A stretch of DNA of 64,000 bases from the NCBI GenBank assembly GCA_017465905.1, contig JAFTVE010000012.1, positions 1 through 64,000 on the forward strand. The letters run 5' to 3'. The stretch comes from Bacteroidaceae bacterium. Its GTDB lineage: Bacteria > Bacteroidota > Bacteroidia > Bacteroidales > Bacteroidaceae. Made by a program: the position numbers and the translations under genes. The notes beneath the pieces were generated by a model. The model was given only the letters and a program-made list of their open reading frames with translations, ran no database searches and was not told the origin of the DNA. Shown in pieces: positions 2,801 through 36,884 of the stretch; position 1 is the first letter of the stretch; every line of letters starts with the position of its first letter.

Positions 2801-3601
2801 TTAGGGCTGCTTGCCGATATAAGCCAAGATACCGCCGTCAACGTAGAGCACGTGACCGTTTACGGCATCAGAAGCCTTCGAAGCGAGGAACACTGCGGGA
2901 CCACCCAACTCTTCGGGGTCGAGCCAGCGACCTGCGGGAGTCTTGGCACAGATGAATGAGTCGAAGGGGTGACGTGAGCCGTCGGCCTGACGCTCGCGCA
3001 AAGGTGCGGTCTGCGGAGTAGCGATGTAGCCCGGGCCGATGCCGTTACACTGGATGTTGTACTCGCCATACTCTGAGCAGATGTTGCGGGTGAGCATCTT
3101 CAAACCGCCCTTGGCTGCTGCATAAGCTGATACGGTCTCGCGGCCGAGCTCTGACATCATAGAGCAGATATTGATGATCTTACCTTCACGGCGCTCCATC
3201 ATCTCGGGGATAACGGCGCTAGAGCAGATGAACGGACCTACGAGGTCGATGTCGATAACCTGCTGGAACTCTGAGCGCTTCATCTCGTGCATGGGGATGC
3301 GCTTGATGATGCCGGCATTGTTTACGAGGATGTCGATCTGACCTACCTCGGCGTGAATCTTCTCTACGAGCTCCTTTACAGCCACTTCATCGGTAACGTC
3401 ACATACGTAGCCGTGTACGTTCTCGATGCCTGCCTCCTTATAGTTGGCCAAGCCCTTCTCCAAAGCGGCTTCGTTGATGTCGTTGAAGATGATGTTCTTG
3501 ATACCTGCCTGCACGAATGCCTTGGCGATGTTGAATCCGATACCGTAAGATGCGCCGGTAATCCAGGCGTTCTTACCCTCTAATGAAAACAAGTTTTTCA
3601 T
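2801..3601 (-). CDS. kduD: 2-dehydro-3-deoxy-D-gluconate 5-dehydrogenase KduD
   Basis: This 266-residue short-chain dehydrogenase reduces 3-deoxy-D-glycero-2,5-hexodiulosonate to 2-keto-3-deoxygluconate in uronate catabolism. Visible features are the cofactor motif TGASYGIG (15-22), NNAG (94-97), the catalytic Ser147 region, and YAAAK with Tyr160 and Lys164. The assignment to KduD rather than another SDR rests on the FSLEGK start, the overall sequence pattern and the neighbouring kduI. The intervening gap to kduI holds a four-helix-bundle gene and AT-rich micro-repeats. Confidence 0.93.
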   Translation of the reverse strand: MKNLFSLEGKNAWITGASYGIGFNIAKAFVQAGIKNIIFNDINEAALEKGLANYKEAGIENVHGYVCDVTDEVAVKELVEKIHAEVGQIDILVNNAGIIKRIPMHEMKRSEFQQVIDIDLVGPFICSSAVIPEMMERREGKIINICSMMSELGRETVSAYAAAKGGLKMLTRNICSEYGEYNIQCNGIGPGYIATPQTAPLRERQADGSRHPFDSFICAKTPAGRWLDPEELGGPAVFLASKASDAVNGHVLYVDGGILAYIGKQP

Positions 3602-6303: not shown

Positions 6304-6486
6304 AGATACGAATAAACGAGCGAAATAATATCAAGCTTGCTTGAATATTTCATTGCTAATGCAAGTATCTCCTCGATAAAACCGCAAGGATGCGAGTAAG
6401 CTTGAACTTCTTGAGCAAAAACGTGACTCTACATCCTCAATGAAAGATTTTTTAAGAATTGTATAGAATAATTCGTGAAAACATCG

Positions 6487-12552: not shown

Positions 12553-14484
12553 ATGAGCGACGAACTAAATATGCCCATTGAGGAACAGGTAGCGTATACT
12601 GACGACAACATACGCCACCTGAGTGATATGGAACACGTGCGCCTGCGTCCCGGTATGTATATCGGTAAGCTGGGCGACGGCTCACAGAACGACGACGGTA
12701 TCTATGTGCTTCTCAAGGAGGTTATCGACAACTCCATCGACGAGTTTAAGATGCATGCAGGCAAGCGCATTGAGATTGACATCACCGACCACAAGCGTGT
12801 CAGCGTGCGCGACTATGGCCGCGGCATCCCTCAGGGCAAGCTGATGGAGGCTGTGAGTGTGCTCAATACCGGCGGTAAGTACGACAGCAAGGCCTTCAAG
12901 AAAAGTGTGGGCCTGAACGGTGTGGGTGTGAAGGCAGTGAATGCGCTGAGTGCACACTTCGAGGCCAGCTCATACCGCGACGGCAAGGTGCGTACGGTAG
13001 TGTTCGAGAAGGGCAACATGGTGAGCGACACCACCGGGAATGCAGGCCCCGAGGAGACGGGTACACGCATCGTCTTTGAGCCCGATAACACGCTGTTTGT
13101 GGGCTACTCGTTCCGCTCGGCCTATATCGAGACCATGTTGCGCAACTACACCTACCTCAACACGGGTCTCACCATCATGTACAACGGCAAGCGCATCCTC
13201 TCGCGCAATGGTTTGGTAGACCTGCTCACCGACAACATGACGGCAACATCGCTCTACCCCATCATACACCTCAAGACCGAGGACATAGAGATTGCCTTCA
13301 CCCATACCGACCAGTACGGCGAGGAGTACTACTCCTTCGTCAATGGCCAGCATACCACACAGGGCGGTACTCACCAAAGTGCCTTCAAGGAGCATATTGC
13401 CCGCACCATCAAGGAGTTTTACAACAAAAACCACGAATTCACCGATATCCGCAACGGTATCGTGGGTGCCATCGCCATCAATGTGGAGGAGCCGGTTTTT
13501 GAGAGCCAGACCAAGGTGAAGCTGGGCTCTACCGCCATGGAACCCGGTGGCCGCAGCCTCAACAAGTTTGTGGGCGACTTCATCAAGACCGAGGTAGACA
13601 ACTACCTGCACCGCAACACCGAGGTGGCCGACACCATGCTGCAGAAGATTCAGGAGAGCGAGAAGGAGCGCAAAGCCATTGCCGGTGTCACCAAGATAGC
13701 CCGTGAGCGTGCCAAGAAGGTCAACATGCACAACCGCAAGCTGCGCGACTGCCGCATTCACTTCAACGACGCCAAGGGCGACCGCACCGACGAGTCGTGC
13801 ATCTTCATCACCGAGGGCGACTCAGCGAGCGGCTCCATCACCAAGAGTCGCGACGTGAATACACAGGCCGTATTCAGCCTGCGCGGTAAACCGCTCAATT
13901 CGTTCGGCCTCACCAAGAAGGTGGTCTACGAGAACGAGGAGTTTAACCTCCTGCAAGCCGCGCTCAACATCGAGGATGGCCTCGAGGGGCTCCGTTACAA
14001 CAAGGTCATCGTGGCCACCGATGCCGATGTCGACGGCATGCACATCCGCCTGCTGATGATTACCTTCTTCCTGCAGTTCTTCCCCGACCTCATCAAGAAG
14101 GGCCATGTATACATCCTGCAGACGCCGCTTTTCCGTGTGCGCAACAGGAAACGCCTCATCAAGGGCTACAAGAAGGAGAACGACACCGACCGCAAGAGCG
14201 ACTTCATCACCCGCTACTGCTACTCCGAGGAGGAGCGCCTGAAGGCCATCGCCGACCTCGGCCCCAATCCCGAGATCACCCGATTCAAGGGTCTCGGTGA
14301 GATTTCGCCCGACGAGTTCAAGCACTTCATCGGCAAGGACATCCGCCTGGAGCGTGTCAGCCTCCACAAGAACGATGCCGTGATGGACCTCCTCGAGTTC
14401 TACATGGGAAAGAACACCATGGAACGCCAGAACTTTATCATTGACAACCTCGTGGTGGAGGAGGATAAACCGGATGAGGAATAA
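12553..14484 (+). CDS. parE: DNA topoisomerase IV subunit B
   Basis: This 643-residue type IIA topoisomerase ATPase subunit has the GHKL ATPase features ([29 protein letters not shown]) and a TOPRIM domain with [17 protein letters not shown] and RFKGLGE. It is distinct from the second B subunit at 49.6 kb, which reads as GyrB. The ParE-type features are the [13 protein letters not shown] sequence and the lack of long insertions. No A subunit is adjacent. coaD follows 33 bases downstream. Confidence 0.92.
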
Positions 14485-14517
14485 CCAGTTGAAAGTGGAA
14501 AGATGAAAGATGAAAGT

Positions 14518-14964
14518 ATGTTCACAACTCGTATCGCTCTTTTTCCCGGTACCTTCGATCCCTTTACGATAGGGCATGATGCTTTGGTGCGCCGTGCGCT
14601 TGGCATCGTCGACGAGCTGTACATCGCCATCGGCATCAACATTGAGAAGCGCACGCTGCTTACTCTTGACGAGCGTATGGAGCGCATATCGGCTCTATAT
14701 AAGGATGAGCCGCGCATCCATGTCGTCAGCTACGAGGGGTTGACCACCGACTTTGCCGCGTCCGTCGGTGCACAGTTCATCATCCGGGGCGTGCGCAGCA
14801 GCGTCGACTTCGAGTATGAGCGCAGCATTGCCGATGTCAACCGTATGCTCACCGGCATCGACACCCTGCTGCTCATCAGCGAGCCCCAGTATGCCGCCAT
14901 CAGCAGCAGCATGGTGCGCGAGCTCGCCCGCTTCGGCAAGGACATCGCTCCCTACCTCCCCTGA
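14518..14964 (+). CDS. coaD: Pantetheine-phosphate adenylyltransferase CoaD
   Basis: This protein carries out the penultimate step of coenzyme A synthesis, transferring AMP from ATP to 4'-phosphopantetheine. The nucleotidyltransferase motif FPGTFDPFTIGH is at the N-terminus and the ISSSMVREL motif near the C-terminus. I place the start at MFTTRIALFPG (14518, 148 residues). An ATG at 14503 is in frame, but the bases before 14518 are micro-repeats (GAAAGATGAAAG) of the type seen at many junctions. Direct repeat 1 begins at its stop codon. Confidence 0.93.
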   Translation: MFTTRIALFPGTFDPFTIGHDALVRRALGIVDELYIAIGINIEKRTLLTLDERMERISALYKDEPRIHVVSYEGLTTDFAASVGAQFIIRGVRSSVDFEYERSIADVNRMLTGIDTLLLISEPQYAAISSSMVRELARFGKDIAPYLP

Positions 14965-15042
14965 GGATAGCGCATAGGAGCCCCCCGATGCCCCTCAAAG
15001 TCAGAGGACAGCCACCCACCGACTCACTTCTTGATGGTAAAC
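14961..15042. repeat. Direct repeat DR1, left copy
   Basis: About 82 bases starting at the coaD stop align with 16484-16567 with few differences (CTGAGGATAGCGCATAGGAG is almost shared). DR1 ends with a sequence that would encode FTIKK-stop on the minus strand, matching the FAIKK-stop end of the LolA-like gene next to DR2. So DR1 keeps the coaD side and a tail fragment of the next gene. Confidence 0.85.
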
Positions 15043-15080
15043 CATGAAGATACTTACGCTTGCAGTGAATAGGCGGCAAA

Positions 15081-15182
15081 GTGCACCTTCTTGTGTACAA
15101 AAAGTGTACAAATAAGTGTAAATCTTTTTGGCTTAACTATTATGGCACTCAGCGGATTATGCCAACAAAAGTGTACATTTGC
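15081..15182 (+). repeat. Inverted repeat, left arm
   Basis: It aligns with the reverse complement of 16351-16450 at roughly 80 percent identity, including the shared block CAACAAAAGTGTACATTTGC and the block GTGTAAATCTTTT. GTGTACA motifs recur inside each arm. Confidence 0.85.
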
Positions 15183-15295
15183 TTTTTGAGGTGATTTATT
15201 CCCGATTGTCCAATGGAATAGACTAAGCCACCGGATAGTCTTATGCCATATTGCCAATATATTACTCCAAGTTGCCGAATATGATTTTATTTTAT

Positions 15296-15303
15296 TACTT
15301 TTG
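15296..15303 (+). promoter_or_regulatory. -7 box for the CPBP gene
   Basis: TACTTTTG fits the -7 consensus, with TTGC at 15272-15275 exactly 20 bases upstream as a near -33 box. The leader to the ATG is about 20 bases. Confidence 0.6.
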
Positions 15304-15327
15304 CAAATAATTTGAAATCTTATTGTT

Positions 15328-15984
15328 ATGGCAGCTAAAATTAAAGGCGTATTGGTCCTGATAGGAGTATTCCTTATTTTCTGGTGGGGAGTGTCATTCA
15401 CAACAGGTTTTTTGTATAATGTATTTTCTTCGTCCGTTTTATCAGCCTTTGCGGCTAAGCTGATTTTCTCGTTTCCTTTCTTATATGTAATATTCAGGAA
15501 ATCGAAAATCTCTTTTATTAATGAAAAGACCGTTAACGAAAAGACTTGCCCTTGGTGGGTTCTATTGGGTCTTGGACTTGCAATTGCATTAATGGCAAGA
15601 ATCTATTATCATCTTTTCAGTCCATACTCGGCTGGTTCCGAAAATATCACTTATCATGGATTGGAAGCGATTTGCATGTTTATAAGTAGTGTGTTGATTA
15701 CTCCTATAATAGAAGAACTGTTTTTTAGGAAGTGGATGGTAACGTATCTTGAAAGAAAAGATATCAAACCTATATATATACTTCTCATTACATCAGTTTT
15801 GTTTTTCATTGTCCATACGAATACCCAATACATGTATTTTCGATTTGACACGTTACTCTCTGGAGCAATATTGTATTATATCTATACCCGCTATCGTAAT
15901 ATAAAGTATTGCATATCTGTACATATTATATGGAATATGGTTGTGAACTTAATTTCTATCGCAAATCAACATATGTTATTATAA
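15328..15984 (+). CDS. CPBP family intramembrane glutamic endopeptidase
   Basis: This 218-residue membrane protein has about six to seven hydrophobic segments and the CPBP (Abi, type II CAAX protease) motifs: EELFFRKW (motif 1, EExxxR) and FIVHTNTQYMY (motif 2, FxxxH). The third, N/H-containing motif is near IWNMVVN. Family members cleave within the membrane; some act in bacteriocin immunity or stress. Codon use is AT-rich compared with both neighbours, and the gene is the only cargo of the repeat-bounded insertion, which points to horizontal gain. The substrate is unknown. Confidence 0.85.
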   Translation: MAAKIKGVLVLIGVFLIFWWGVSFTTGFLYNVFSSSVLSAFAAKLIFSFPFLYVIFRKSKISFINEKTVNEKTCPWWVLLGLGLAIALMARIYYHLFSPYSAGSENITYHGLEAICMFISSVLITPIIEELFFRKWMVTYLERKDIKPIYILLITSVLFFIVHTNTQYMYFRFDTLLSGAILYYIYTRYRNIKYCISVHIIWNMVVNLISIANQHMLL

Positions 15985-16130
15985 CATCTGATACTACAAC
16001 CGACTCATGTCAACTGTAACAGGTGAAAACAAGTTTCTTTATTAATTGCCAGAAAACATACCACCACCTCTTCTGCTATATCCCAACTTGTAACCTATCA
16101 TCATCGCTGTTCTATAGTGCCAAAATTATT

Positions 16131-16218
16131 TATCCCTGCAAATAGAAAACGTTCTACCTGCAAGTAGAAAACATTCTGCCTGCAAGTAGAAAAGTTTCTA
16201 CCTGCAAGTAGAAAAAGC
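16131..16218. repeat. 22-bp-period dyad array 2 (4 copies)
   Basis: Four direct units start at 16131, 16153, 16175 and 16197, exactly 22 bp apart. Each holds a dyad of the form TCTACCTGCAAGTAGA followed by a short A-rich linker. The first copy is degenerate. The period matches array 1 at 184-283, though the core sequence differs. Confidence 0.9.
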
Positions 16219-16350
16219 GATAGGCAAGGAGATGCTGGAGAACAATAGGTTAGAGGCTACGATTTGGCTTTGTCATTGTCTGAAAGCCTCACAGCTTCGC
16301 AACCTTTGAGAGCAAACAACGAAAAATGTGTAAAAAACACATGCCCAAAG

Positions 16351-16450
16351 GCAAATGTACACTTTTGTTGGCGTAATCCGCTGAGCATCATCGTAGTTAA
16401 GCCGAAAAGATTTACACAAAAATTACATCTTTTGTACACAAAATGTACAC
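16351..16450 (-). repeat. Inverted repeat, right arm
   Basis: This is the partner of 15081-15182 in opposite orientation. The minus strand carries the same GTGTAAATCTTTT, CTCAGCGGATTA and CAACAAAAGTGTACATTTGC blocks. Confidence 0.85.
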
Positions 16451-16483
16451 ATCTCTAGCTGTTTTCAGAGTTTCAAGAAATGT

Positions 16484-16567
16484 CTGAGGGATAGCGCATA
16501 GGAGAGCCCCGATGCCCCTCAAGTCGGGAGGGACAGCCACTCACATGCTCATTTCTTAATGGCAAAC
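16484..16567. repeat. Direct repeat DR2, right copy
   Basis: This aligns with DR1 (14961-15042). It starts with the same CTGAGG(G)ATAGCGCATAGG seen at the coaD stop and runs into the last codons of the LolA-like gene, so it keeps the gene side of the presumed original junction. Confidence 0.85.
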
Positions 16568-17160
16568 AGACTATTGTCGAGCTTTGCTCCCTCACTGATG
16601 TCGGTCAGCGTATAGGAGGTGTAGTCGCCATTGGTGTAGTGCATCATGATGGTGCTGATGCGCTTCGTGCCTTTGTCGTAGCGTGCCTCCACCTTACTGA
16701 TGCCTCCGCGTGCCTTCTCGTCGTCGAGCTCCACCTCCACGATGTGGCAGTCGTCCAGTTCGTCCACATTCATCTTTGTCATATACTCCTCGGCTTCGTG
16801 ATAGTCGCCCGTCATGGCAGCCAGCAGCATGATGCGCATCATCTTGGCAGTGCCGCTCTTGGCGCTCATCACGCGGCGCTTACCCTTGGTCACCATCATC
16901 ACCTGCATGTCGTTGATGACAAAGCAGTCGCCTGCAGGCTCATCATAGTGGATTGACATGAGCCCCGGGGCATACTGGAAGCTGGCCGTGCTGCTGACGG
17001 TAGTCTCCAAGGGGGCTACGTACTTGTCTTGCTGTAGGCGCGACACGATACTTGTGGTACTACTGCCTACTTGCTTGATGGCATCGAGCACGGCGTGGTC
17101 TTGCGCTGCCATCCACATGGGAGCAGCAATAATCATTAGGGAGAGAAGGATTTTTTTCAT
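16549..17160 (-). CDS. LolA-like outer membrane lipoprotein carrier family protein
   Basis: This 203-residue protein has a signal peptide (MKKILLSLMIIAAPMWMAAQ). The mature part reads as the LolA fold: an early TTVSSTASFQYAPGLMSIHY strand pattern and the VINDMQVMM turn. LolA-like carriers accompany MMPL exporters in aryl polyene and flexirubin clusters, where they probably move the lipid across the periplasm. Here it is the last gene of the cluster, but it is separated from the MMPL gene by 495 bases, so it may have its own promoter. The assignment is moderate because the sequence is divergent. Confidence 0.7.
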   Translation of the reverse strand: MKKILLSLMIIAAPMWMAAQDHAVLDAIKQVGSSTTSIVSRLQQDKYVAPLETTVSSTASFQYAPGLMSIHYDEPAGDCFVINDMQVMMVTKGKRRVMSAKSGTAKMMRIMLLAAMTGDYHEAEEYMTKMNVDELDDCHIVEVELDDEKARGGISKVEARYDKGTKRISTIMMHYTNGDYTSYTLTDISEGAKLDNSLFAIKK

Positions 17161-17241
17161 GAATTATGATTTATGAATTATGATTTTTTTAATGGCACAC
17201 GGATGACACTGATTTTACGGATTGCCACAGATTTTTTTTTT

Positions 17242-17414
17242 GGTAATAATATAGATGTTGTCCAAGCCTCGGTATTGTCCCCCTAGATTAGGGGGACGAG
17301 CGAAGCGGAGGGGGTCTTATCTACGAGAAGCGTACCACCTCCCCCTCTTCGAGGGTACTCCTCCTAACCTAGGAGGAGAATTTTAAGAATGTGGACAACT
17401 CCTATATTATTGCC
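17242..17414. repeat. Hairpin-rich 173-bp element with 24-bp inverted ends
   Basis: The ends 17242-17265 and 17391-17414 are inverted copies (GGTAATAATATAGATGTTGT against its near complement). Inside are two further hairpins, CCCCCTAgatTAGGGGG and CTCCTCCTAacCTAGGAGGAG. The element looks like a MITE or REP/BIME unit. The rest of the gap 17161-17655 holds only micro-repeats (ATTATCC and TTTCAA units) and no gene. Confidence 0.75.
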
Positions 17415-17655
17415 TTTTTTTTTCATTATCCATTATCTATTATCCATTGTCCATTATCAAGTTGCCGTCCGGATGGCAGTTTTCGTTTTCGTCTTCGTTA
17501 ATCTTTCAACTTTATAAATGCTTTCGCATTTAAGAAGACTTGCTGGCTCGGCATAACCCCGCACGCGGTTTCTGCACTCGCAACGCTGCGTCTTTCAATT
17601 TTGACCTTGGCCCCTTTGGGCGTCGACCTTCGGTTCATCTTTCAACTTTCAATTT

Positions 17656-35677: not shown

Positions 35678-36697
35678 ATGGCAAAAGTGCACTGGACACC
35701 GGAAGGATGGCGCTGCGAGAAGCAGAAGGAGCATCTGTATAGGGCTAAATGGATGGACTATCGGTCTCCATCCATCCAACTGCTTACGATGGTGACATCG
35801 GAGCGCATGCCACTGCTTGGCGAGTTGCGAGGCGAGCAGATAGTCCTCACTACGCTTGGGCATAAAGTAGCGGAAGAAATTGAACGCATACCCTCCTACA
35901 TAGGAGCATCGTCAATAGAAATCTACAATTATGTAATCATGCCCGACCACATACACATCCTCTTGCGCATCCATGACAGACTGCCCAAGCATCTGGGCCA
36001 GTATGTGCGCTGGTTCAAGCTGCAGTGCGACGATGCTTGTCGGGCACTCTCGGCTATTCCCGAGAGTAAGGGGCTCTGCCTCTTCGCCAAGGAGTACCAC
36101 GACCGCATACTGACAGGGAAGAACCAGCTCGCCCACATGGTGCGATACATCAAGGACAACCCTCGTCGCTTGGCATTGAAGCGTACCCATCGTGACCTGT
36201 TTCGTATCAGGCAGAATGTGACTATTGGCGGTATCCCTTGCGTTACACTGGGCAATATGTTTCTTGCCGACTATCCCCAGCGGCAAGTGCTGCAATGCTC
36301 CCGAAGGCTGACAAGCGAGCAGATAGCTGCCCGTAAGGAGGAGTGCCTGGCCGAAGCAGCCAATGGCATGGTGTATGTCACCGCAGCCATCTCCGAGGGC
36401 GAGAAGCTGATCTCCAGGGCACTCCGTGAGGCTGGCTTTCCCATCGTTATCCTTCTTGAACGGGGCTTCCCGTCGCCCGAGAGTCCTCACTACCGCTACT
36501 TCAAGCCGCAGGGAGTCTATTTTGAGGCTTGTGCTGCTGGCAAGCTGCTACTGGTGGAGCCGAGTTCCGCGCTGCTGGAGCGGCAAGATATCGCGGCGCG
36601 GGTAATTGCCAAGACGGGAGATATACCTCGCGACACGCAACGCTATCGGTTTGTGGCCATGAATGTGATTGCTGAGTGCATGTGTGAACTTGCATGA
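35678..36697 (+). CDS. REP-associated HUH (Y1) transposase with extra C-terminal domain
   Basis: This 339-residue protein begins with a Y1 transposase domain (about 15-195): the HUH pair is His91-Ile-His93 (MPDHIHILL) and the nucleophile is Tyr157 (MVRYIKDNP). Single-domain relatives end near here. It continues with about 145 residues that read as a Rossmann-like domain (TAAISEGEKLISRALREAGF, about 235-254, then FKPQGVYFEACAAGKLLL, about 275-292). I do not recognise a named activity for this part. The gene is framed by 20-bp direct repeats and has two hairpins at its 3' side, as expected for REP/BIME mobilisation. Confidence 0.85.
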   Translation: MAKVHWTPEGWRCEKQKEHLYRAKWMDYRSPSIQLLTMVTSERMPLLGELRGEQIVLTTLGHKVAEEIERIPSYIGASSIEIYNYVIMPDHIHILLRIHDRLPKHLGQYVRWFKLQCDDACRALSAIPESKGLCLFAKEYHDRILTGKNQLAHMVRYIKDNPRRLALKRTHRDLFRIRQNVTIGGIPCVTLGNMFLADYPQRQVLQCSRRLTSEQIAARKEECLAEAANGMVYVTAAISEGEKLISRALREAGFPIVILLERGFPSPESPHYRYFKPQGVYFEACAAGKLLLVEPSSALLERQDIAARVIAKTGDIPRDTQRYRFVAMNVIAECMCELA

Positions 36698-36749: not shown

Positions 36750-36797
36750 ATGTAAGGAGCAAGGCGAAACTCCCCATAAAACTGTACATAAACTATC

Positions 36798-36817
36798 CAT
36801 AAACTGTACTTATTTTT
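36798..36817. repeat. 20-bp direct repeat, right of transposase
   Basis: Identical to 35582-35601; see that entry. Confidence 0.85.
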
Positions 36818-36884
36818 ACTGTAACTGGCATGTTATGCAGGGAGTTATGCTACTAAAACTGTACATTCCCCTTTCCTTCTGTTT

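What the first reader, a model, noticed from the sequence alone, without database searches (positions are those of the whole stretch)
14961..16567. CPBP protease gene in a nested-repeat insertion between coaD and the LolA-like gene
Seen directly: ~82-bp direct repeats (14961-15042, 16484-16567) enclose ~100-bp inverted repeats (15081-15182, 16351-16450), which enclose one AT-rich CPBP gene and a dyad array. DR1 keeps the coaD stop plus the tail codons FTIKK-stop; DR2 keeps the same leading bases plus the LolA tail FAIKK-stop. This is what an insertion with an unusually long duplication of the coaD-lolA junction would leave. No transposase is present. Both arms of the inverted repeat contain GTGTACA motifs. 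It may be an undescribed non-autonomous cargo unit; CPBP proteins can act in immunity.
Basis: partly seen in the sequence, partly recalled or inferred. Interest (0 to 1): 0.8.

Follow-up and report, generated by a model that had tools for sequence, protein, structure and literature searches.

The report
Protease cargo in transposon-like inverted repeats
A bacterial membrane-protease gene sits inside what looks like a stripped-down copy of a mobile DNA element, whose fuller copies in related gut bacteria carry a DNA-bending protein and a helicase-like protein between long inverted ends but no recognisable transposase.

Summary
An 83%-identical ~105-bp inverted repeat (15081-15186 / 16347-16450) encloses an intact AT-rich CPBP protease gene and a 22-bp-period array, inside an 83.5%-identical ~82-bp direct repeat. 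Congener G002 joins coaD to lolA directly, with one junction copy and no CPBP gene.

The arms are not private to this locus. A profile built from them gives 64 matches in 12 of 19 genomes of the genus (own included); 34 form adjacent convergent pairs. Pairs enclose other contents: HU-HIG + array + DUF3987; the array alone or with remnants; the array plus an AAA_14/DUF4143 gene. The segment is best read as a core-less, cargo-carrying member of a TIR-bounded HU/DUF3987 element family; 5 of 9 short copies keep HU or DUF3987 remnants, the window copy none.

TIR iterons differ by subtype and track the DUF3987 C-terminal ~85 aa (probably winged helix), not its 77-98%-identical remainder. Eight complete units examined contain no third gene-sized ORF, hence no recognisable transposase.

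The 82-bp direct repeat is not a family hallmark: none of 14 other paired copies has a comparable one. Mobility is inferred, not shown; whether G002 is never-occupied or a loss is unresolved. Nine paper searches found no description.

The parts
14961..15042 (+). Direct repeat copy 1: coaD stop, intergenic bases and a dead copy of the lolA 3' tail
   Evidence: 83.5% identical to 16484-16567; single copy in congener G002
15029..15069 (-). Remnant of a separate dispersed intergenic repeat that meets the direct repeat at a shared ATGGTAAAC
   Evidence: 83-91% identical over 32-43 bp to 10 further places in the own genome; seven of the matches read out
15081..15186 (+). Left terminal inverted repeat (profile core 15092-15180), iterons GTGTACA/GTGTAAAT
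   Evidence: outside copies 71-80% identical over 60-96 bp
15296..15303 (+). TACTTTTG, a match to the Bacteroidota -7 consensus TAnnTTTG (consensus recalled), 24 nt before the CPBP start
   Evidence: read directly; not tested against chance
15328..15984 (+). CPBP (Rce1-like) intramembrane protease gene, 218 aa; EELFFR, FFIVH and HIIWN motifs present (motif list recalled)
   Evidence: Pfam PF02517 E 6.6e-19; translation
16130..16215 (+). Tandem array of 22-bp-period units (TTCTACCTGCAAGTAGAA...), shared by the family
   Evidence: pattern found inside 15 of 17 TIR pairs, this one included, and nowhere else in those loci
16347..16450 (-). Right terminal inverted repeat (profile core 16353-16440)
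16484..16567 (+). Direct repeat copy 2, including the functional lolA 3' end
   Evidence: close to G002
14503..14964 (+). coaD, left neighbour (CTP_transf_like)
16549..17160 (-). LolA-like gene, right neighbour
   Evidence: Pfam LolA E 2.1e-6; 99% identical in G002, 97% in G014
36778..36884 (+). Solo TIR of another subtype (iteron CTGTACAT / CCATAAACTGTAC), a second trace of the family in this window
   Evidence: profile match 36782-36868 E 1.1e-8; local score 112 and 109 to the TIRs of L126 and L132, 48 to L130, 25 to L127, 16 to L019

Best explanation
The segment 15081-16450 is a non-autonomous, cargo-bearing member of a family of TIR-bounded elements found in this genus of herbivore-gut Bacteroidaceae. 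A fuller member reads TIR - HU-HIG gene - 22-bp-period array - DUF3987 gene - TIR. Shown: the TIR pairs, the shared array, the HU/DUF3987 content of fuller members, deletion derivatives, the empty junction in G002, and the match between DUF3987 C-terminal class and TIR iteron class. Inferred: the DUF3987 protein (helicase-like ATPase with a probable C-terminal winged helix) binds the iterons of both ends, the HU-HIG protein shapes the complex, and strand transfer is done by an unidentified host or element enzyme. In the window copy HU and DUF3987 are taken to have been lost and a low-GC CPBP protease gene with its own promoter-like motif captured. It could be recognised in trans by the type-A DUF3987 on contig C15 of the same genome. 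The 82-bp direct repeat is a separate, locus-specific duplication, probably made by microhomology-mediated recombination.
For: Pairing: 64 profile matches in 12 of 19 genomes, own included. Of 20 adjacent matches within 8 kb, 17 are convergent, 2 are -- and 1 is ++; 34 of 64 matches lie in convergent pairs. Similarity does not rest on the profile alone: the left arm hits C15 at 77%, E 3e-13. Fuller units: of 11 loci with HU and DUF3987 placed head to head, 9 have an inverted repeat around them and 2 (L126, L141) are cut by a contig end; among the 9, ends of other loci score as high only within the same iteron class (L127/L022, L130/L133) and at most 59 elsewhere. The array lies inside all 8 fuller loci scanned, with 0 units outside. 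Eight complete units have no further ORF of 64 aa or more besides HU (or a frame antisense to it) and DUF3987. Deletion derivatives: 5 of 9 short copies carry HU and/or DUF3987 remnants at E < 0.001; reversed-sequence controls give nothing below 0.03. At a site sharing its left flank, G002 keeps an intact HU gene while own C30 keeps only the two ends of HU. Empty junction. Specificity: rank Mantel of DUF3987 C-terminus with right TIR 0.68, p 1e-4, 17 loci (0.63 in 14 without near-duplicates); N-terminus 0.14, p 0.13. With left TIR, about 2.5 kb away, 0.48, p 0.006, 9 loci; 0.43, p 0.014 with N-terminal similarity removed. Winged-helix leads are weak: AbiEi E 0.0041, AspA E 0.37-0.61. DUF3987 ATPases are predicted helicases of mobile elements in PMC5862659 (passages read).
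Against: The window copy has no detectable HU or DUF3987 remnant (only 38 bp at 79% beside the right arm), nor do own C25 and three other short copies, so their descent by deletion rests on arms plus array. No target-site duplication was recognised, though short ones were looked for only by eye. G002 may be a loss rather than a virgin site: at three places in the lolA tail the left direct repeat agrees with G014 and the right one with G002. Some units share a place across species (left flank plus HU of G000:C8 at 95-96% in G014 and G004), so they are not recent jumps. 30 of 64 matches are unpaired. N-terminal similarity also leans towards the left TIR (0.26, p 0.07), and the right-TIR correlation may partly reflect linkage to the adjacent DUF3987 3' end. 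The decay site does not share its right neighbour between the two genomes. No movement has been observed.
Confidence: 0.7

Rival explanations
1. A MITE or composite unit of an ordinary insertion sequence: the arms are ends of an IS whose transposase gene is elsewhere or lost, and HU/DUF3987 are passengers.
For: TIRs, an empty junction and deletion derivatives are what an IS family leaves. No structure or enzyme assay excludes an unrecognised transposase.
Against: The eight complete units examined have no third gene-sized ORF, and no inserted ORF in the paired loci that I searched with Pfam is a transposase (not every listed ORF was searched). The one Y1_Tnp-like gene beside a solo TIR in the window has no relative among the 222 loci held. 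No short target-site duplication was recognised by eye. Iterons track the DUF3987 C-terminus.
Confidence: 0.2
2. The modules are chromosomal, largely vertically inherited intergenic systems (chromosome structure or regulation), spread mainly by homologous recombination at shared repeats rather than by transposition.
For: Some copies share a site across species. The G002:C27 arms 7 kb apart bound a DUF3987 fragment and several other genes, which suggests recombination between arms. No target-site duplication recognised.
Against: Copies with type-A arms lie at unrelated sites in one genome (C15, C25, C47). In 7 of 7 other genomes that match the right neighbour of own C30 no TIR match adjoins it, though left flanks differ, so this is not a clean empty site. 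Decay of coding content fits a selfish element better.
Confidence: 0.2
3. The CPBP gene and its inverted repeat are an invertible or phase-variable segment.
For: Long inverted repeats around a gene can recombine (general knowledge); the pair here is 83% identical.
Against: The gene has its own promoter-like motif inside the arms, the arms are dispersed genome-wide with different contents, and a congener lacks the segment.
Confidence: 0.04
4. The 82-bp direct repeat is a true long target duplication of one insertion event.
For: Single junction copy in G002; score 92 against at most 21 for controls.
Against: Nothing comparable at 14 other paired copies. The repeats do not abut the arms (38 and 33 bases between), the junctions carry microhomology, and the two copies differ by 16%, more than the coaD side (6%) or lolA side (3%) differs from G002.
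Confidence: 0.15

Closest known systems
BrickBuilt MITE of Porphyromonas gingivalis (PMC4596501; outline and passages read)
   Same: Intergenic Bacteroidota element with a 23-nt tandem array between terminal inverted repeats; no transposase remnant inside.
   Different: Its TIRs are 12 nt and match IS5-family ISs; the passages read mention no HU/DUF3987 units. Here TIRs are ~80-110 bp with iterons, and fuller units carry HU-HIG and DUF3987.
Bacteroides/Parabacteroides module BT4734-like + DUF3987 + DUF4248 + HU + smalltalk + amidase
   Same: DUF3987 near an HU-HIG protein.
   Different: DUF3987 only 23-25% identical, fused to PriCT_2 in the one tested; BT4734-like and amidase neighbours. No inverted repeat encloses the module in L220 or L221; L220 has a 38-bp one within or at the end of its DUF3987 gene.
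Primase-helicase proteins of mobile elements with DUF3987 ATPase domains (PMC5862659, passages)
   Same: Same ATPase family, predicted there to be a helicase in mobile-element replication.
   Different: Pfam finds no primase domain in the protein tested here; the passages read do not discuss TIRs.
Tn7-like and other iteron-ended transposons (recalled; the cargo survey PMC8649781 seen only as a search listing)
   Same: Long ends with repeated binding sites, defence-like cargo.
   Different: No transposase or transposition gene set in the units examined; no 5-bp duplication recognised.

Membership tests
TIR-bounded HU-HIG/DUF3987 element family (defined here) | Paired convergent ~80-110-bp TIRs with iterons | tested here: met
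   15092-15180 / 16353-16440, profile E 7e-24 and 2e-23 (these arms are in the profile); independent similarity to C15, C25, C32 copies
TIR-bounded HU-HIG/DUF3987 element family (defined here) | 22-bp-period array between the TIRs | tested here: met
TIR-bounded HU-HIG/DUF3987 element family (defined here) | HU-HIG and DUF3987 genes between the TIRs (complete member) | tested here: not met
   no tblastn match in the segment: at most a non-autonomous derivative
MITE / non-autonomous derivative | TIRs shared with larger copies, core genes lost | tested here: met
   loss itself is inferred
MITE / non-autonomous derivative | Target-site duplication | tested here: inconclusive
   none recognised at the arms by eye; the 82-bp repeat is not adjacent and is peculiar to this copy
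Insertion sequence / transposase-encoding transposon | Transposase gene between the ends | tested here: not met
   window ORFs and eight complete units
CPBP intramembrane protease | Rce1-like domain | tested here: met
   PF02517 68.4 bits, cut-off 22.4
CPBP intramembrane protease | Catalytic EExxxR / FxxxH / HxxxN motifs (recalled) | tested here: met
   EELFFR, FFIVH, HIIWN in the translation
Known anti-phage defence system | Match to a defence model | tested here: not met
   no PADLOC hit for the CPBP protein at E <= 0.01

The most novel reading that the evidence does not exclude
A transposase-free class of mobile element in Bacteroidota: a helicase-like DUF3987 protein with an exchangeable C-terminal winged helix reads subtype-specific iterons in both terminal inverted repeats, an HU-HIG protein and a tandem array assemble the ends, and relocation uses helicase/replication-based capture rather than a classical transposase. 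Deletion derivatives then act as cargo shuttles for defence-like and membrane-protease genes.
Probability: 0.33. Interest if true: 0.88.

Novelty: new variant of a known kind. Interest (0 to 1): 0.7.

Why it matters
If the family is mobile, its complete members carry only a DNA-bending protein and a helicase-like ATPase between their ends, so the enzyme that moves them is unknown, and the sequence offers a direct test: does the swapped C-terminal domain bind the swapped iterons? It would also explain part of the unannotated intergenic repeats in these gut Bacteroidaceae as decayed ends of one family, and give a route by which small genes (CPBP protease, YhcG nuclease, AAA_14/DUF4143 ATPase) change chromosomal sites.

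Tried and rejected
Long direct repeat as target-site duplication: rejected, nothing comparable at 14 other paired copies (two of the 17 pairs, L089 and L095, were not tested there). Short target-site duplications: none recognised by eye in 16 pairs or 7 complete units; not excluded statistically. The Y1_Tnp-like gene beside the solo TIR at 36.8 kb as mobiliser: no relative in 222 loci. RNA families: one sub-threshold match, a CRISPR-repeat model inside coaD, in 14400-17600. Array as covarying hairpin: inner free positions are no more complementary than dealt-out halves (99 of 204 against mean 94.7), although the innermost pair alone is (47 of 51); no claim made. Integron attC and Xer/dif readings of the arm core were considered from memory and dropped for lack of evidence. 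Solved structures for the CPBP protein: none at E <= 0.1. Plasmid and phage relatives of DUF3987 are distant, 21-25% identical. Paper searches listed no description of such an element; a recalled HU-superfamily paper was not found in the library. A sub-threshold toxin-model row (14 bits, cut-off 720) is chance and was ignored.

Full report
What was checked. The window lies in an unnamed assembly G000 (2.84 Mb, 54 contigs, 79.7% complete), contig C47. The nested repeats are real: direct repeats 14961-15042 and 16484-16567 (83.5%), inverted arms 15081-15186 and 16347-16450 (83%). Between the arms are an intact 218-aa CPBP (Rce1-like) gene at 15328-15984 and an array of 22-bp-period units at 16130-16215. 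The CPBP gene has GC 0.335 against 0.514 for the window.

Empty junction. Of 19 genomes of the genus, 3 (own included) have a match to this LolA-like protein at E <= 0.001. Other CPBP matches are 28-37% identical over the domain only. In G002 (LolA 99% identical) coaD and lolA are joined with a single copy of the junction sequence and no insert. Of 16 other genomes with coaD I compared 9 with the window; only G002 shares the coaD-lolA neighbourhood, and 7 more distant ones were not examined. Polarity stays open. In the lolA tail the left direct repeat agrees with G014 at three places where the right repeat agrees with G002 (read), so the duplication may be older than the split from G002, and G002 may have lost the insert.

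The arms are a family. A sequence-only profile of 10 own-genome arms gave 64 matches at E <= 0.01 in 12 of 19 genus genomes (150 of about 800-1,700 first-look candidates were scored per genome, so this is a lower bound). Adjacent matches within 8 kb are convergent in 17 of 20 cases; the three exceptions belong to the nested arms on G000:C15 and G014:C49. 30 of 64 matches are not in an adjacent convergent pair; several of those sit near contig ends. Contents between arms: HU-HIG and DUF3987 (own C15, G010:C6, G011:C27; in reverse, with HU internally deleted, in G004:C30; DUF3987 without HU in G006:C50); array without large genes (9 short copies: own C25 and copies in G010, G011, G012, G014); array plus an AAA_14/DUF4143 gene (G014:C11); and the CPBP gene in the window. 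On own C15 and G014:C49 a YhcG nuclease gene lies between the DUF3987-side arm and an extra arm. Own C25 and G014:C11 lie between the same two genes yet differ in cargo. The 7-kb G002:C27 pair encloses a DUF3987 fragment and several other genes and is probably compound.

Fuller units. A scan of named genomes with the DUF3987 protein, which finds close relatives only, returned 20 loci, all from assemblies titled Bacteroidaceae or Bacteroidales; the titles that name a host name deer, sheep, goat, buffalo or cattle. Adding own C15 and C8, HU and DUF3987 were found head to head in 11 loci; 9 have inverted repeats around them and 2 are cut by contig ends. In L133 the left arm is itself cut, and in L132 HU is internally deleted. 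Among these 9, ends of other loci score as high as a locus's own pair only within one iteron class (L127/L022, L130/L133); L140 reaches 58-59 with L127/L022 against its own 69; other cross-locus scores are 45 or less. Iterons by locus: GTGTAAATC, TTTACGCAAAAG, GTGTACAAATTT, CCATAAACTGTAC, ACGCAAATGTT, TTGTGCACGC, TTTAGGCAAAAG. The array pattern was found inside 15 of 17 TIR pairs (absent in compound L080 and in L094) and in 8 of 8 fuller loci, three of which repeat pairs already in the 17, with 0 units elsewhere in those loci. Eight complete units show only HU (or a frame antisense to it), DUF3987 and ORFs of 63 aa or less. The array also occurs without type-A arms at other own-genome places: C8 is a complete type-B unit and C30 a short type-B copy; C4 and C52 are not explained.

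Specificity module. DUF3987 residues 1-452 are 77-98% identical between the 17 loci compared, but the last ~85 residues fall into classes: 40-77% identical between classes and 85-100% within, with L131/L138 at 72%. C-terminal similarity tracks right-TIR similarity (rank Mantel r 0.68, p 1e-4, 17 loci; 0.63 in 14 without near-duplicates), N-terminal does not (0.14, p 0.13). For the left TIR, about 2.5 kb away, C-terminal r is 0.48 (p 0.006, 9 loci), N-terminal 0.26 (p 0.07), and C-terminal 0.43 (p 0.014) when N-terminal similarity is removed. Physical linkage may help the right-end result, less so the left. Weak hits to AbiEi and AspA suggest a winged helix; no model could be made.

Decay. Of 9 short copies, 5 (L082, L085, L091, L092, L093) carry HU and/or DUF3987 remnants at E < 0.001, 4 (L020, L087, L088, L090) do not; reversed sequences give nothing below 0.03. 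G002:C21 and own C30 share the left flank (92% over 234 bp) and left TIR; G002 keeps an intact HU gene there while own C30 keeps only its two ends. The right neighbour of C30 lies on another contig in G002, so the site is orthologous on one side only. In the window copy neither core gene is detectable.

Direct repeat. The 82-bp repeat scores 92 where its controls reach 21. Of 14 other paired copies, 13 do not exceed their controls and one scores 22 against 19. The window repeat overlaps a different dispersed repeat at a shared ATGGTAAAC on the left and has a CTGAG in common at the right junction. I take it as a locus-specific recombination scar.

How it probably works. Shown: TIR pairs, array, core genes, class matching, decay, empty junction. 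Inferred: DUF3987 binds iterons at both ends through its C-terminus, HU-HIG shapes the complex, and an unidentified enzyme does strand transfer; core-less copies such as this one could be moved in trans, here by the type-A DUF3987 on C15. The CPBP gene is passenger cargo with its catalytic motifs and a promoter-like motif; its target is unknown.

Spread. The DUF3987 profile at E <= 1e-10 matched 6 of 151 sampled genomes of the family: 5 of this genus (one, G015, only weakly and in part) and 1 weakly in another. This form thus looks close to genus-restricted. Related modules in Bacteroides and Parabacteroides have other partners and no inverted repeat around the module in the two checked, though one has a 38-bp inverted repeat around most of its DUF3987 gene. 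A Phocaeicola record shows a 74-bp inverted repeat around the DUF3987 domain, one arm inside the open frame. Neither was followed further.

Print. Nine paper searches listed no description of such elements. The nearest is BrickBuilt (outline and passages). The library lacks most subscription journals.

Noticed in passing
window 36778-36884: A solo TIR of a different subtype (iteron CTGTACAT) directly downstream of a Y1_Tnp-like gene (35678-36697; 24.6 bits, cut-off 23); no partner TIR found in the window.
   Followed up: partly
window 15029-15069 and own contigs C35, C1, C29, C9, C12, C41, C49, C7, C6: A second common intergenic repeat (ACAGCGAGTGAAAGTATCTTCATGGTTTACC...), unrelated to the arms.
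   Followed up: partly
L019 8283-13471 (own C15): Nested arms: a 242-aa gene plus arm on one side and a YhcG/DUF1016 nuclease gene plus extra arm on the other side of a complete unit; G014:C49 shares the YhcG form, and G006:C121 has arm and DUF3987 pieces beside the same neighbour without YhcG.
   Followed up: partly
L222 4858-4930 / 6337-6409 (Phocaeicola massiliensis) and L220 4940-4977 / 6410-6447 (Parabacteroides distasonis): Inverted repeats (74 bp at 77%; 38 bp at 79%) around the DUF3987 domain, inside or at the ends of its coding frame.
   Followed up: no
L214 975-1062 / 3218-3304: A variant in which TIRs enclose DUF3987 alone, with a more distant HU gene just outside.
   Followed up: no
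L020 8547-8735: A ~190-bp intergenic repeat with many copies in at least 11 of 19 genomes of the genus.
   Followed up: no
L081 4055-5230 and L083 1816-2889: Genes between arms match PADLOC candidate models PDC-S01 (AAA_14/DUF4143) and PDC-S02 (YhcG).
   Followed up: partly
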